Below the pieces are notes generated by a model. The model saw only the letters and a list, made by a program, of their open reading frames with translations. It was not told where the DNA came from and made no database searches. Shown here one piece after another: positions 3,076-57,809 of a stretch of DNA of 64,000 bases (its first letter is position 1; every line of letters begins with the position of its first letter). The translations under genes and the position numbers were made by a program. The stretch lies in contig NZ_JABVXC010000001.1 in NCBI RefSeq assembly GCF_013349955.1, positions 186,001 through 250,000 on the forward strand. Reading direction: 5' to 3'. The stretch comes from Onishia taeanensis. GTDB lineage: Bacteria > Pseudomonadota > Gammaproteobacteria > Pseudomonadales > Halomonadaceae.

Positions 3076-3110
3076 GATCGTATTCCTAGAATCTTGTTGA
3101 TTGTTATGGG

Positions 3111-3264
3111 GCTTCGGGCTTCGGGCTTCGGGCTTCGGGCTTCGGGCTTCGGGCTTCGGGCTTCGGGCTTCGGGCTTCGGGCTGCGGGCTGCGGGCTGCG
3201 GGCTGCGGGCTGCGGGCTGCGGGCTGCGGGCTGCGGGCTGCGGGCTGCGGGCTGCGGGCTGCGG
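3111..3264. repeat. Two-block heptanucleotide tandem array (10 x GCTTCGG then 12 x GCTGCGG)
   Basis: Starting at 3111 there are ten exact copies of GCTTCGG, followed from 3181 by twelve exact copies of GCTGCGG, with no interruption in the 7-bp phase. The array lies in the 236-bp spacer between the dipeptidase-like gene and the DUF5943 gene, so it should be transcribed as part of the dgcAB operon mRNA. Exact arrays of this length usually vary in copy number by slippage. The clean split into two blocks differing by one base suggests two separate expansions. Confidence 0.97.
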
Positions 3265-3311
3265 GCGGCATAATGGCTCGCAGCGCTTAGCCCACGGCTC
3301 GTAGCTGGCCG

Positions 3312-17616: not shown

Positions 17617-18648
17617 ATGCGCGTATTAGGGATCGAGACATCCTGCGACGAGACCGGCGTTGCCCTCTTTGACACCGAGCGCGGCCTGGTCGCCGACGCT
17701 CTCTACAGCCAGATCGCCATGCACGCCGATTACGGCGGCGTGGTGCCGGAACTCGCCTCCCGCGACCACACCCGCAAGCTGCTGCCGCTGATCGAGGACG
17801 TCCTGAACGACGCCGGCATGACGCGTGCCGAGCTCGACGGCATCGCCTATACCGCGGGCCCGGGACTGGTTGGCGCCCTGATGGTCGGTGCCTCCACGGC
17901 CCATGGCCTGGCCCGGGCACTGAATATCCCGGTGCTCGGCGTACATCATATGGAAGGCCACCTGCTGGCCCCCATGCTCGAAGATGAGCCGCCGGCGTTT
18001 CCCTTCGTTGCTCTGCTGGTGTCGGGCGGCCACACCCAACTGGTCGAGGTGCGCGGACTCGGCGACTATAAACTACTGGGCGAATCGGTGGACGATGCCG
18101 CCGGCGAAGCCTTCGACAAGGCCGCCAAGATGCTGGACCTCGAGTACCCCGGCGGACCCAACGTGGCGCGCCTGGCCGAACTGGGTGACCCGACGCGCTT
18201 TCGCTTTCCGCGCCCGATGACCGATCGGCCGGGACTCGACTTCAGCTTCTCCGGGCTCAAGACCCATACCCTGACCGCGATTCGCTCGCTCAGGGAAGCC
18301 GACCAGCTCGATGATCAGGCCCGCGCCGATGTCGCCCGAGCCTTCGAGGAGGCCGTGGTCGATACACTGGTGATCAAGTGCCGACGCGCTCTGGATGCCA
18401 CCGGCTTGAAGCGCCTGGTGGTCGCGGGGGGCGTCAGCGCCAACACTCGGCTTCGCGAGCGCCTGGCCGTGGAGACCGACAAGCGCGGCGCCAAGGCCTT
18501 CTATCCCCGCGGGCGCTTCTGCACCGATAACGGCGCGATGATTGCTTATGTGGGCGCCCAACGGCTGCTGGCCGGTGAACGGGACGACCGTGCCATGCGT
18601 GCCGTGCCGCGCTGGCCGCTGGATCAGTTGATGCCGGCCGGGCACTGA
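17617..18648 (+). CDS. tsaD: tRNA N6-adenosine threonylcarbamoyltransferase
   Basis: This 343-residue ASKHA-fold enzyme transfers threonylcarbamoyl to A37 of ANN-decoding tRNAs, working with TsaB, TsaE and TsaC. Motifs include [19 protein letters not shown], the metal-binding HMEGHLLAP region, [13 protein letters not shown], and the C-terminal [14 protein letters not shown] and [16 protein letters not shown]. The length is normal. It is divergent from rpsU as in E. coli. The last 31 codons are repeated three more times immediately downstream as a 134-bp tandem array, so the functional 3' end may have been replaced or added during that process. Confidence 0.98.
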
Positions 18649-19047
18649 CCACGATTCAGCTCCATGATTGCGCTCTTAACGGTTCCGGCGCCCAACGGCT
18701 GCTGGCCGGTGAACGGGACGACCGTGCCATGCGCGCCGTGCCGCGCTGGCCGCTGGATCAGTTGATGCCGGCCGGGCACTGACCACGATTCAGCTCCATG
18801 ATTGCGCTCTTAACGGTTCCGGCGCGCAACGGCTGCTGGCCGGCGAGCGAGACGACAGCGCCATGCGGGCGGTGCCACGCTGGCCGCTGGATCAGTTGAC
18901 GCCAGCCGGGCACTGATCACGGCTCACAGCCATGATCGCGCTCTCTAAGGTTCCAGCGCTCAACGGCTGTTGGCCGGTGAACGGGACGACAGCGCCATGC
19001 GCGCCGTGCCGCGCTGGCCGCTGGATCAGTTGATGCCGGCCGGGCAC
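18554..19047 (+). repeat. 134-bp tandem array of the tsaD 3' end (four copies, last one partial)
   Basis: Copies start at 18554, 18688, 18822 and 18956, exactly 134 bp apart. Each holds the last 31 codons and stop of tsaD plus about 39 bp of downstream DNA; the fourth is cut after about 92 bp. Copy 2 differs from copy 1 by a single base over the coding part. Copy 3 has 11 differences in the coding part, nine at third codon positions, and about as many in the short spacer. Copy 4 is intermediate and lacks the stop after GGGCAC, running on for three codons to TGA. Only copy 1 is joined to the intact gene. Confidence 0.97.
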
Positions 19048-20664: not shown

Positions 20665-20753
20665 CCCCTTATCTCGGCCTGCCACGAGCGCGGCCTCACC
20701 CGCCGCCCTCTCACTTCCCTTGCCTTTATCCAGGGGCTGCCCCCAGCCCCCGG

Positions 20754-54901: not shown

Positions 54902-56521
54902 ATGTCGAAGCCGTTGATCCTGGTGCTGGGTGATCAGCTCAGTTTATCGCTGGCAAGCCTTCAAGACCTGCCAGAAGGCGCCGTGGTGGCGCTTTGCGAG
55001 GTCGATGAAGAAGGCCGCTACGTGCCCCACCACCCGCAGAAGATCGCGATGATGTTCGCTGCCATGCGTCACTTCGCCCGCGAACTCGAGGCATCCGGCT
55101 ATTCGGTGCATTACAGCCGCCTCGACGATGACGACAACCGTCAGCAACTGCTCAAAGAGGCCGAACGCCTGGCCCGGCTGCATGACTGCGACGAAATTCG
55201 CGTGGTTCGCCCCGGGGAGTGGCGGCTCTACGAGGCAATCAAGGCGCGCACGGCTGGCGCCGAGAACGCAGCCCTGCCCTGGCGACTCGTCGAAGACGAT
55301 CGCTTCTTTACCACTCCGGACGACTTCGCCGCCTGGGCCAAGGGCCGCAAGACCTATCGTCTCGAACACTTCTACCGGCATCTTCGCAAGCGCAGCGGGC
55401 TCTTGATGGACGACGGCCAGCCGGTCGGCGGCCAGTGGAACTTCGATCACGATAACCGCGAGCCACTGCCCGATCATCTTGCCTTCCCCACGCCGCCGAC
55501 CCACGAGCAGGATGCCACCACCAAGGCGGCACTGGCGCTGGTGGCGTCCCGGTTCGGGGAGCATTTCGGCTCACTCGAGGCCTTTCACTGGCCGGTGACC
55601 CGGACACAGGCGCTTGTCGAGCTCGAGCATTTTCTCGGCAACTGTCTGCCGGACTTCGGCCGCTACCAGGACGCGCTGAGTGATCAGTCACCTTTTCTCT
55701 TTCACTCGCGCCTGTCGGCGGCGCTAAACCTGGGCCTGCTGTCGCCCCTCGAGGTCTGTGAGGCCGCCGAAGAGGCGTATCGCAAGGGTCGTGCGCCTCT
55801 TAACTCGGTGGAGGGCTTCATCCGCCAGATCCTTGGTTGGCGGGAATACGTGCGCGGGCTGTACTGGACCCGCATGCCCGGCTACAAGCGTGGCAACGGC
55901 CTTTCCGCCACGCGAGATCTGCCGGCATTCTTCTGGACCGGCGACACCGAAATGCGCTGCCTCAAGCGGGCCATCGAGATGACCCGCGATCACGCCTATG
56001 CCCACCATATCCAGCGACTGATGGTCACGGGTAACTTCGCCCTGCTGTGCGGCGTCAAGCCAGAAGCCCTCTGCGACTGGTATCTGGCGGTCTATGCCGA
56101 TGCCTGCGAGTGGGTCGAGCTGCCCAATACCCTGGGCATGGTGCTGCATGCCGACGGCGGGCTGATGGGCTCCAAACCCTACTGCGCCTCGGGAAAGTAC
56201 ATCGACCGCATGGGCGATCACTGCAAGCACTGTCGCTATGACCCCAAGCAGGTCACCGGTACTCATGCCTGCCCCTTCAATAGCCTTTACTGGCACTTCA
56301 TCGAAGAACACCGCGACGTACTGGCCGACAACCCGCGCATGAAGCTGATCTATGGCTCGCTTGACCGCATGAAAGACGACAAGCGGGAGGCCATGCGCCA
56401 GCAGGCCGACGCCTTCCTGGCGCGCCTGGACACGGCGCCGGCCTATGGGCAAGGCCAGCACCTGACAGGCTATCGTGATACCGGCAGCTGGCCCCTCACC
56501 TCCTCCCAGGAGTCTTCCTGA
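54902..56521 (+). CDS. Iron-sulfur bacterial cryptochrome/(6-4) photolyase (PhrB/FeS-BCP type)
   Basis: This 539-residue flavoprotein belongs to the prokaryotic (6-4) photolyase group. It has a deoxyribodipyrimidine-like N-terminal domain (KPLILVLGDQLSLSLASLQDL). An FAD region follows (GFIRQILGWREYVRGLYWTRMPGYK, AYAHHIQRLMVTGNFALLCGV). The four predicted 4Fe-4S ligands are C383, C441, C444 and C457 (CKHC...HACPFN), the same spacing as in Agrobacterium PhrB as I recall it. It repairs (6-4) photoproducts with light. It overlaps the DUF393 gene by one base and is distinct from the Cry-DASH at 39.9 kb. Confidence 0.93.
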   Translation: MSKPLILVLGDQLSLSLASLQDLPEGAVVALCEVDEEGRYVPHHPQKIAMMFAAMRHFARELEASGYSVHYSRLDDDDNRQQLLKEAERLARLHDCDEIRVVRPGEWRLYEAIKARTAGAENAALPWRLVEDDRFFTTPDDFAAWAKGRKTYRLEHFYRHLRKRSGLLMDDGQPVGGQWNFDHDNREPLPDHLAFPTPPTHEQDATTKAALALVASRFGEHFGSLEAFHWPVTRTQALVELEHFLGNCLPDFGRYQDALSDQSPFLFHSRLSAALNLGLLSPLEVCEAAEEAYRKGRAPLNSVEGFIRQILGWREYVRGLYWTRMPGYKRGNGLSATRDLPAFFWTGDTEMRCLKRAIEMTRDHAYAHHIQRLMVTGNFALLCGVKPEALCDWYLAVYADACEWVELPNTLGMVLHADGGLMGSKPYCASGKYIDRMGDHCKHCRYDPKQVTGTHACPFNSLYWHFIEEHRDVLADNPRMKLIYGSLDRMKDDKREAMRQQADAFLARLDTAPAYGQGQHLTGYRDTGSWPLTSSQESS

Positions 56522-56934
56522 TGTCTCCGACCGCTACGTCACCACGGCATGCCGCTTCCCCCGTGACGCTCTTTCACGACGGCCACTGCCCCTTCTGCCA
56601 ACGCGAAGTCGCCTGGCTCGAGCAGCATCCGCGCCGCGAGCGTATCAGGCTGGTCGATATACAAGCCGATGACTTCGATGCCGCCGCCTGGGGGTGCTCG
56701 TTCGAGGCCATGATGGGCCGCCTGCATCTCGCGGATGCCAAGGGTGCCTGGTTCGTGGGTATGGATGCCAGTCGGGCGCTGTATGCCGTGCTGGGCTATC
56801 GACGGCTGGTGGGTCTGACGATGTTGCCGGGCCTGGCCTGGTGCTTCGACCAGAGCTACGCCTGCTTCGCCCGCCATCGAGTCAGGCTGGGGAATTGGTG
56901 GCAAGCAAGGCAACGCCGGCACACCAGAAACTGA
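56521..56934 (+). CDS. DUF393 (DCC-family) thiol-disulfide oxidoreductase-like protein
   Basis: This 137-residue protein starts with the family mark FHDGHCPFCQREVAWLEQ, a thioredoxin-like CxxC site, followed by RIRLVDIQADDFD. Function is not established. It overlaps the photolyase stop (TGATG) and has AGGAG 8 nt before its ATG, so it is coupled to the photolyase. A role in keeping the photolyase FeS cluster or flavin reduced is inference. Confidence 0.88.
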   Translation: MSPTATSPRHAASPVTLFHDGHCPFCQREVAWLEQHPRRERIRLVDIQADDFDAAAWGCSFEAMMGRLHLADAKGAWFVGMDASRALYAVLGYRRLVGLTMLPGLAWCFDQSYACFARHRVRLGNWWQARQRRHTRN

Positions 56935-56945
56935 CTCAATCAAGG

Positions 56946-57015
56946 CTTGAGATCAGAGGCTTGAAGTCAGGGGCTTGAAGTCAGGGGCTTGAAGTCAGGG
57001 GCTTGAAGTCAGGGG
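56946..57015. repeat. 14-bp tandem repeats (cttgaagtcagggg)
   Basis: One degenerate unit (56946-56959) and four exact units of CTTGAAGTCAGGGG (56960-57015) run head to tail. They follow the DUF393 stop by 12 bp and lead directly into the structured stretch beyond 57020. The core cttgaag is shared with the intergenic repeats at 0.3, 3.1 and 32.6 kb. Confidence 0.95.
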
Positions 57016-57019
57016 CTCG

Positions 57020-57277
57020 AGAGCGAGCGGGTTATGAGCGCATGACAAGAGGGAAAGTCCAGCCCTGTCGGTGAGGCTGGCGAGTGCGGGATAACCCACC
57101 ACCGTTGGCATAAGCGCTCTTTCAGGAAGCGAGGTGGTAAGTTAATAGCAGGGTAAGTCAGTGAAACCGGCAATATGCCGGAAGTGCTGATTGAGGCGAA
57201 AAATGAAGCGCGCGATGCGAAGCTCACGGTATGAAGCGGCAGGTCCGCAAAGATGATGCGGAGCCTATCTCTGCCGC
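57020..57277 (+). ncRNA. Structured non-coding segment (possible group II intron domain I remnant or novel RNA)
   Basis: No convincing gene lies in these 258 bp. The plus-strand text folds well by eye. ACCACC/GGTGGT encloses about 35 nt, with an internal cgct..agcg helix. TCAGTG/TGCTGA encloses CCGGC-AATAT-GCCGG. GCGGCAG (57236-57242)/CTGCCGC (57271-57277) encloses TCCGC/GCGGA. It begins near GAGCGCATGACAAGAGGG and runs to the stop codon of the convergent DUF6482 gene. The style resembles the 5' domain of bacterial group II introns, but I cannot confirm it. No reverse transcriptase gene is in the window. Direction is inferred. Confidence 0.35.
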
Positions 57278-57580
57278 CTAGAAGACCAGCGGCATACGCG
57301 AGCTGAGCGCATCATGGTAGTGGGCGTCGCGGCCGATCACCTCGTCGTGGGCCACATACTGCACCAGGTAGGCCCGATGGATGCCGACCCGCTTGAGCTC
57401 GAGATAGATATCATCGAGGGCACGAAAGAGCATCGGCTTGCCGGACTGGGTCAATAGATGGCGTGCGCCCTCGATATCTTCCAGTTCCACTTGGTAGAAA
57501 CGGCTGCCGGCGTGGCTGATGACGCGAATTTCGAAATTGTCGTGTCGCTTGGCAAAGGCCTTGAAGTCTTGCAGTTCCAT
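57278..57580 (-). CDS. DUF6482 small protein
   Basis: This 100-residue soluble protein has MELQDFKAFAKRHDNFEIRV and YLVQYVAHDEVIGRDAHYHDALSSRMPL and looks like the DUF6482 family of gammaproteobacteria; function unknown. The ATG at 57580 has GGAGG 5 nt upstream; an extended frame adds 17 residues. The stop codon adjoins the structured stretch on its 3' side. Its C-terminus should be compared with relatives to see whether it was altered there. Confidence 0.75.
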   Translation of the reverse strand: MELQDFKAFAKRHDNFEIRVISHAGSRFYQVELEDIEGARHLLTQSGKPMLFRALDDIYLELKRVGIHRAYLVQYVAHDEVIGRDAHYHDALSSRMPLVF

Positions 57581-57809
57581 GCCGTCCTCCTGGATAGCGG
57601 GATAGTGGCCGAACGCGTGGCAGCTTGCCATGACGTTCGGTCATTGCGGTTGTCGATATATCAGCGCCCGATAGGCGTGCTCCAGATATACCTGGGGCAC
57701 AGCTTGGCTGTGCCCCATGACGACAATATGACATGTCGCCCTCACCGCTATGACCCTGGCCGCTACGCCATGTTCCGTGCAGACAGCACGTCAAAAAGCG
57801 CCGACGCCA

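What the first reader, a model, noticed from the sequence alone, without database searches (positions are those of the whole stretch)
57020..57277. Strongly foldable gene-free segment, candidate structured RNA or intron remnant
Three multi-part helices with pairing arms separated by tens of bases, including nested GCGGCAG/CTGCCGC around TCCGC/GCGGA, fill 258 bp between a 14-bp repeat array and the end of the DUF6482 gene. No coding signal is evident.
Basis: inference. Interest (0 to 1): 0.6.

Follow-up and report, generated by a model that had tools for sequence, protein, structure and literature searches.

The report
Conserved stem-loop in convergent 3' spacer
The segment is the non-coding tail shared by two genes that face each other in a salt-loving bacterium; it is not an intron remnant, but the RNA copied from its other strand carries a stem-loop kept in nine related species, probably part of how that gene's message ends or is protected.

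Summary
The 258 bp lie in the spacer between two convergent genes: a DCC1-like thiol-disulfide oxidoreductase (+, ends 56934) and DUF6482 (-, stop 57278-57280). The window comes from an Onishia-like Halomonadaceae genome. The - strand, DUF6482 sense, folds better (z -1.7 and -2.7). No Rfam family, group II introns included, matches; the segment is single-copy and vertically inherited, so it is not an intron remnant. One part is a real conserved RNA element. On the - strand, a 12-nt stem (57133-57144 with 57092-57103) enclosing a small hairpin recurs, once per genome, in nine genomes, always downstream of DUF6482. Its arms stay identical where synonymous sites are near saturation, and its changes (G-C, G-U, A-U) suit the - strand only. 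The spacer is also C-rich and G-poor on that strand (C/G 1.5-2.0), the most skewed stretch of the window, as expected of a Rho-utilisation region; two relatives carry a hairpin-plus-U-run terminator right after the stop. Best reading: the 3' UTR and termination zone of DUF6482 with a lineage-specific stem-loop, whose role is inferred.

The parts
56521..56934 (+). DCC1-like thiol-disulfide oxidoreductase gene, convergent partner on the left
   Evidence: PF04134 E=1.3e-22; syntenic in most Halomonadaceae loci
56944..57017 (.). 14-bp tandem array, 5.3 copies (GGCTTGAAGTCAGG; on the - strand CCTGACTTCAAGCC, C-rich and G-poor)
   Evidence: absent in the nearest relatives, where a 13-bp array or none occurs
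56935..57277 (-). C-rich, G-poor 3' spacer downstream of DUF6482, candidate Rho-utilisation/termination zone
   Evidence: C/G 1.68 here, 1.5-2.0 in nine genomes; most skewed 150-340-nt stretch of the window; DUF6482 ranks 2nd of 57 roughly called genes for C>G in the 150 nt downstream
57236..57277 (-). hairpin directly after the DUF6482 stop codon (GCGGCAG..CTGCCGC around TCCGC/GCGGA); no U-run here
   Evidence: fold; H. salinarum and O. niordana have a hairpin followed by TTTTTT(T) shortly after the stop
57158..57190 (-). second hairpin: TCAG..CCGGC-N5-GCCGG..CTGA
   Evidence: same stem in G002, G005 (with G-U on the - strand), G006 and G161; shorter version in H. smyrnensis and getboli, absent in salinarum/niordana (sequences; by inspection)
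57092..57144 (-). conserved stem-loop: P1 arms 57133-57144 and 57092-57103, inner hairpin P2 57127-57131 with 57115-57119
57278..57631 (-). DUF6482 gene whose 3' UTR carries the element (start at 57631 or at an internal ATG near 57580)
   Evidence: PF20090 E=6.2e-10; ORF 57278-57631

Best explanation
The segment is the 3' untranslated region of the DUF6482 transcript (- strand) in the spacer between two convergent genes. It works as a termination and 3'-end zone. A hairpin sits right after the stop. It is followed by an unusually C-rich, G-poor stretch in which Rho could load and stop transcription before it runs antisense into the oxidoreductase and photolyase-related genes. A conserved 12-bp stem-loop, P1/P2 at 57144-57092, about 135 nt past the stop, most likely serves as a stable 3' end or a barrier to 3'-5' exonucleases for the Rho-terminated or read-through RNA. 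Shown: convergent layout, strand composition, conservation of P1 in nine genomes, U-run terminators at the same place in two relatives. Inferred: Rho dependence, transcript boundaries, and the protective role of P1.
For: P1/P2 found at E 3e-18 to 7e-5 in nine of 275 family genomes, once each, always between DUF6482 and the oxidoreductase gene; the six used to build the model match by construction, but salinarum (G001), niordana (G003) and G161 were not in it. P1 pairs 2-12 are standard in 85 of 88 cells on the - strand; sliding the partner drops paired cells from 90% to about 40%. Six variable pair positions show G-U on the - strand and C-A mismatches on the + strand; P1 pair 7 shows G-C, G-U and A-U. 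P1 arms are 24/24 identical between G002 and H. salinarum although the window and salinarum agree at only 49-57% of four-fold sites. Spacer C/G ratio 1.5-2.0 in nine genomes and the top of the window; the 200 nt downstream of DUF6482 are C>G on average in 79 loci (mean skew 0.19 against -0.03, sd 0.10). U-run terminators just after the DUF6482 stop in L023 and L024.
Against: No transcript data. Covariation is thin: two pairs with changes on both sides, and the shuffle control is not exceeded (219 and 111 of 500 reach the counts of both-sided changes, 65 of 500 the covariation score). P2 alone is not more stable than shuffled sequence in most genomes. C>G skew is only a proxy for rut sites; in loci with short gaps it reflects the antisense of a coding region. 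One congener (G004) has the spacer but lacks P1. In H. salinarum and O. niordana a terminator precedes P1, so there P1 lies only in read-through RNA or in a separate transcript.
Confidence: 0.55

Rival explanations
1. P1/P2, perhaps with the CCGGC hairpin, is the body of a trans-acting small RNA, made by its own promoter or cut from the DUF6482 3' UTR, with C-rich single-stranded parts as seed.
For: Conserved stem with fixed gene context and a C-rich surround; lies past a U-run terminator in salinarum and niordana, so a separate RNA would explain its retention there.
Against: No sigma-70-like promoter found in the spacers scanned and no U-run terminator after P1 in the window; no ectopic copies.
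Confidence: 0.2
2. The spacer is essentially neutral: a convergent gap enlarged by tandem duplication, with P1 kept by chance or slow drift.
For: Most of the spacer is as divergent as synonymous sites (77% against 80-84% at four-fold sites to G005); three different tandem arrays (14, 13, 15 bp) in three lineages; most Halomonadaceae have a gap of 0-60 bp.
Against: P1 arms are 24/24 identical across a divergence where neutral sites keep about half, and the stem survives in nine genomes.
Confidence: 0.15
3. The inverted repeat TGCCACC...GGTGGCA is a DNA site for a dimeric protein rather than an RNA stem.
For: Seven-base inverted half-sites are well conserved in several species.
Against: The distance between half-sites varies (28 to 33 bp), it lies between two gene ends rather than at a promoter, and substitutions follow RNA wobble rules on one strand.
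Confidence: 0.06
4. Group II intron or other mobile-element remnant, as first suggested.
For: Gene-free segment with several helices.
Against: No Rfam match, no copies elsewhere in the genome, none in plasmids or phages, orthologous position in all carriers.
Confidence: 0.01

Closest known systems
Rho-dependent terminators (rut regions) in bacterial 3' UTRs
   Same: C-rich, G-poor untranslated RNA after a stop codon; guards against antisense read-through between convergent genes (role of Rho and overlapping 3' UTRs reviewed in PMC7821165)
   Different: Rho dependence not tested; a conserved stem-loop is not a defining part of a rut site
Intrinsic (Rho-independent) terminators
   Same: Hairpin directly after the stop codon at about the position where two relatives have hairpin plus U-run
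   Different: The window hairpin has no U-run
3'-UTR-derived small RNAs and protective 3' UTR stem-loops
   Same: Conserved stem-loop in a 3' UTR with fixed gene context
   Different: No transcript, processing site, Hfq/ProQ binding or target known
Group II introns (Rfam models)
   Same: Only that several helices are present
   Different: No model match, no reverse transcriptase, single copy at an orthologous site

Membership tests
Group II intron | Match to catalytic-core covariance models (domain V and others) | tested here: not met
   No gathering match in the window; none at E<=10 in 56900-57400
Group II intron | Intron-encoded protein or other copies | tested here: not met
   No such ORF; single copy
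Rho-dependent terminator | C-rich, G-poor untranslated RNA downstream of the gene | tested here: met
   Most skewed stretch of the window; C/G 1.5-2.0 in nine genomes
Rho-dependent terminator | Termination that depends on Rho (bicyclomycin-sensitive) | not testable with these tools
   Needs RNA data
Intrinsic terminator | G+C-rich hairpin followed by U-run | tested here: not met
   No terminator-like match at 57236-57277; met in relatives L023 and L024
Conserved structured RNA element | Stem kept across divergent sequences | tested here: met
   85 of 88 P1 cells paired; 90% against about 40% when slid
Conserved structured RNA element | Significant covariation | tested here: inconclusive
   Two pairs with both-sided change; shuffles reach the observed counts
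Small RNA gene | Own promoter and terminator | tested here: not met
   None by simple consensus scans of this spacer; other sigma factors not covered

The most novel reading that the evidence does not exclude
P1/P2, with the CCGGC hairpin, is an undescribed functional RNA (3'-UTR-derived regulator or 3'-end element) that arose in the common ancestor of Onishia and the Halomonas smyrnensis group when the convergent gap widened.
Probability: 0.25. Interest if true: 0.4.

Novelty: new member of a known kind. Interest (0 to 1): 0.24.

Why it matters
It shows how a spacer between convergent genes can gain a conserved RNA stem while the sequence around it turns over at the neutral rate or faster and is rebuilt by unrelated short tandem arrays. 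If confirmed, it is a compact natural test of how Rho-dependent termination and 3' stem-loops work together in Halomonadaceae, where 3' ends are little mapped. It is of local rather than general importance.

Tried and rejected
Rfam at gathering and at E<=10: nothing. Blastn against plasmids and phages: nothing. Own genome: one copy. Family-wide blastn: only three congeners. CM search in 145 genomes of the order: only the window's own. Weak CM matches in ten further family genomes (E 3e-4 to 0.09) are not next to DUF6482 and look like chance. A + strand RNA was considered and rejected because variable pairs are C-A mismatches there and fold z-scores are weaker in most genomes (G161 is an exception). 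Papers: no mention of DUF6482 and no useful Halomonas 3'-end map; the Rho 3'-end mapping paper PMC6061677 is not held.

Full report
What is there. The 258 bases lie in the 343-bp spacer (56935-57277) between two convergent genes: a DCC1-like thiol-disulfide oxidoreductase on + (56521-56934, PF04134) and DUF6482 on - (stop at 57278-57280, PF20090). The nearest named genomes are Onishia taeanensis strains. The left part of the spacer is a 14-bp tandem array (56944-57017).

Is it more foldable than chance? As + strand RNA, no: z +1.00 and -1.32 for the two halves. As - strand RNA, moderately: z -1.72 and -2.68. The nested GCGGCAG/CTGCCGC helix starts at the base after the DUF6482 stop codon on the - strand.

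What it is not. No Rfam family reaches its gathering score anywhere in the window, and at E<=10 the segment gives three chance matches. It occurs once in its genome, not in plasmids or phages, and similar DNA is found only at the orthologous place in three congeners at 76-77% identity. This does not support an intron remnant or mobile element.

Comparison across the family. DUF6482 and the oxidoreductase are convergent neighbours in most of the 80 Halomonadaceae loci examined, mostly with a gap of 0-60 bp. The gap is 180-343 bp in Onishia, H. smyrnensis and H. getboli; H. litopenaei and a few others also have larger gaps, with unrelated contents. The wide spacers carry different tandem arrays: 14 bp in the window, 13 bp in G002 and G006, and about 15 bp in H. 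litopenaei L044 (the last by inspection).

A conserved stem-loop. Read on the - strand, the spacers share YRACYTRCCACC - 28 to 33 nt - GGTGGYRKGTTN. A covariance model from six of them finds nine genomes in 275 of the family, once each, all between the same two genes. Three of the nine (G001, G003, G161) were not used to build it. P1 pairs 2-12 are standard pairs in 85 of 88 cells. The arms are identical between G002 and H. salinarum, although the window and H. salinarum agree at only 49-57% of four-fold sites. G002 was not itself compared with salinarum at those sites; the window stands in as its close relative. At six positions the variation is G-U on the - strand and C-A on the + strand, and P1 pair 7 appears as G-C, G-U and A-U. 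This points to RNA of the - strand. The formal covariation count is weak: two pairs change on both sides and the shuffle control is not exceeded. Paired cells, however, fall from 90% to about 40% when the partner is slid. The inner hairpin P2 is present in most genomes but is not exceptional in stability. A second hairpin (57158-57190) is shared by a subset (inspection).

Strand composition. On the - strand the spacer is rich in C and poor in G in all nine genomes first compared, G004 included (C/G 1.50-2.02). Its 150-, 250- and 340-nt windows are at the extreme of the 64-kb window. DUF6482 ranks second among 57 roughly called genes for C>G in the 150 nt downstream; that gene call missed the oxidoreductase. 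In 79 loci the 200 nt after DUF6482 are C>G on average (0.19 against -0.03, sd 0.10), though with short gaps this is the antisense of a coding region. C-rich, G-poor untranslated RNA is what Rho prefers (established knowledge, not from a tool). Rho limits read-through, and missing or leaky terminators between convergent genes give overlapping 3' UTRs (PMC7821165). H. salinarum and O. niordana have a hairpin with a U-run just after the DUF6482 stop; the window has a hairpin there without a U-run.

Reading. The most likely account is a DUF6482 3' UTR that serves as a termination zone, with a conserved stem-loop that marks or protects the 3' end. Layout, composition and stem conservation are shown; Rho dependence and protection are inferred. 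A small RNA is the main rival: in salinarum and niordana P1 lies beyond a terminator. No promoter was found in the spacers by a simple consensus scan.

Verdict. It is a lineage-specific conserved 3' element, of modest interest.

Noticed in passing
56944-57017: 14-bp tandem array; at the same spacer there is a 13-bp array in G002/G006 and a 15-bp array in H. litopenaei (L044): independent short arrays at one spacer, C-rich and G-poor on the DUF6482 strand in the window and L044.
   Followed up: partly
3109-3266: GGGCTGC repeated 22.6 times at 99% match, a 7-bp unit that would shift a reading frame; possible phase-variable tract.
   Followed up: no
18553-19047: 134-bp tandem unit in 3.7 copies (91% match) overlapping the end of an ORF.
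   Followed up: no
20665-20753: Another convergent spacer with very strong strand skew (C-G skew 0.41 on +), a second candidate Rho-type region.
   Followed up: no
L018 (G004) 1317-1497: A congener whose spacer of similar composition lacks the P1 stem, suggesting loss.
   Followed up: partly
L044, L046 and L072, gap after DUF6482: A different shared hairpin, about GGGCCCTGGC-N-GCGCCAGGGACTTGT, in the convergent gap of H. litopenaei and H. salina.
   Followed up: no
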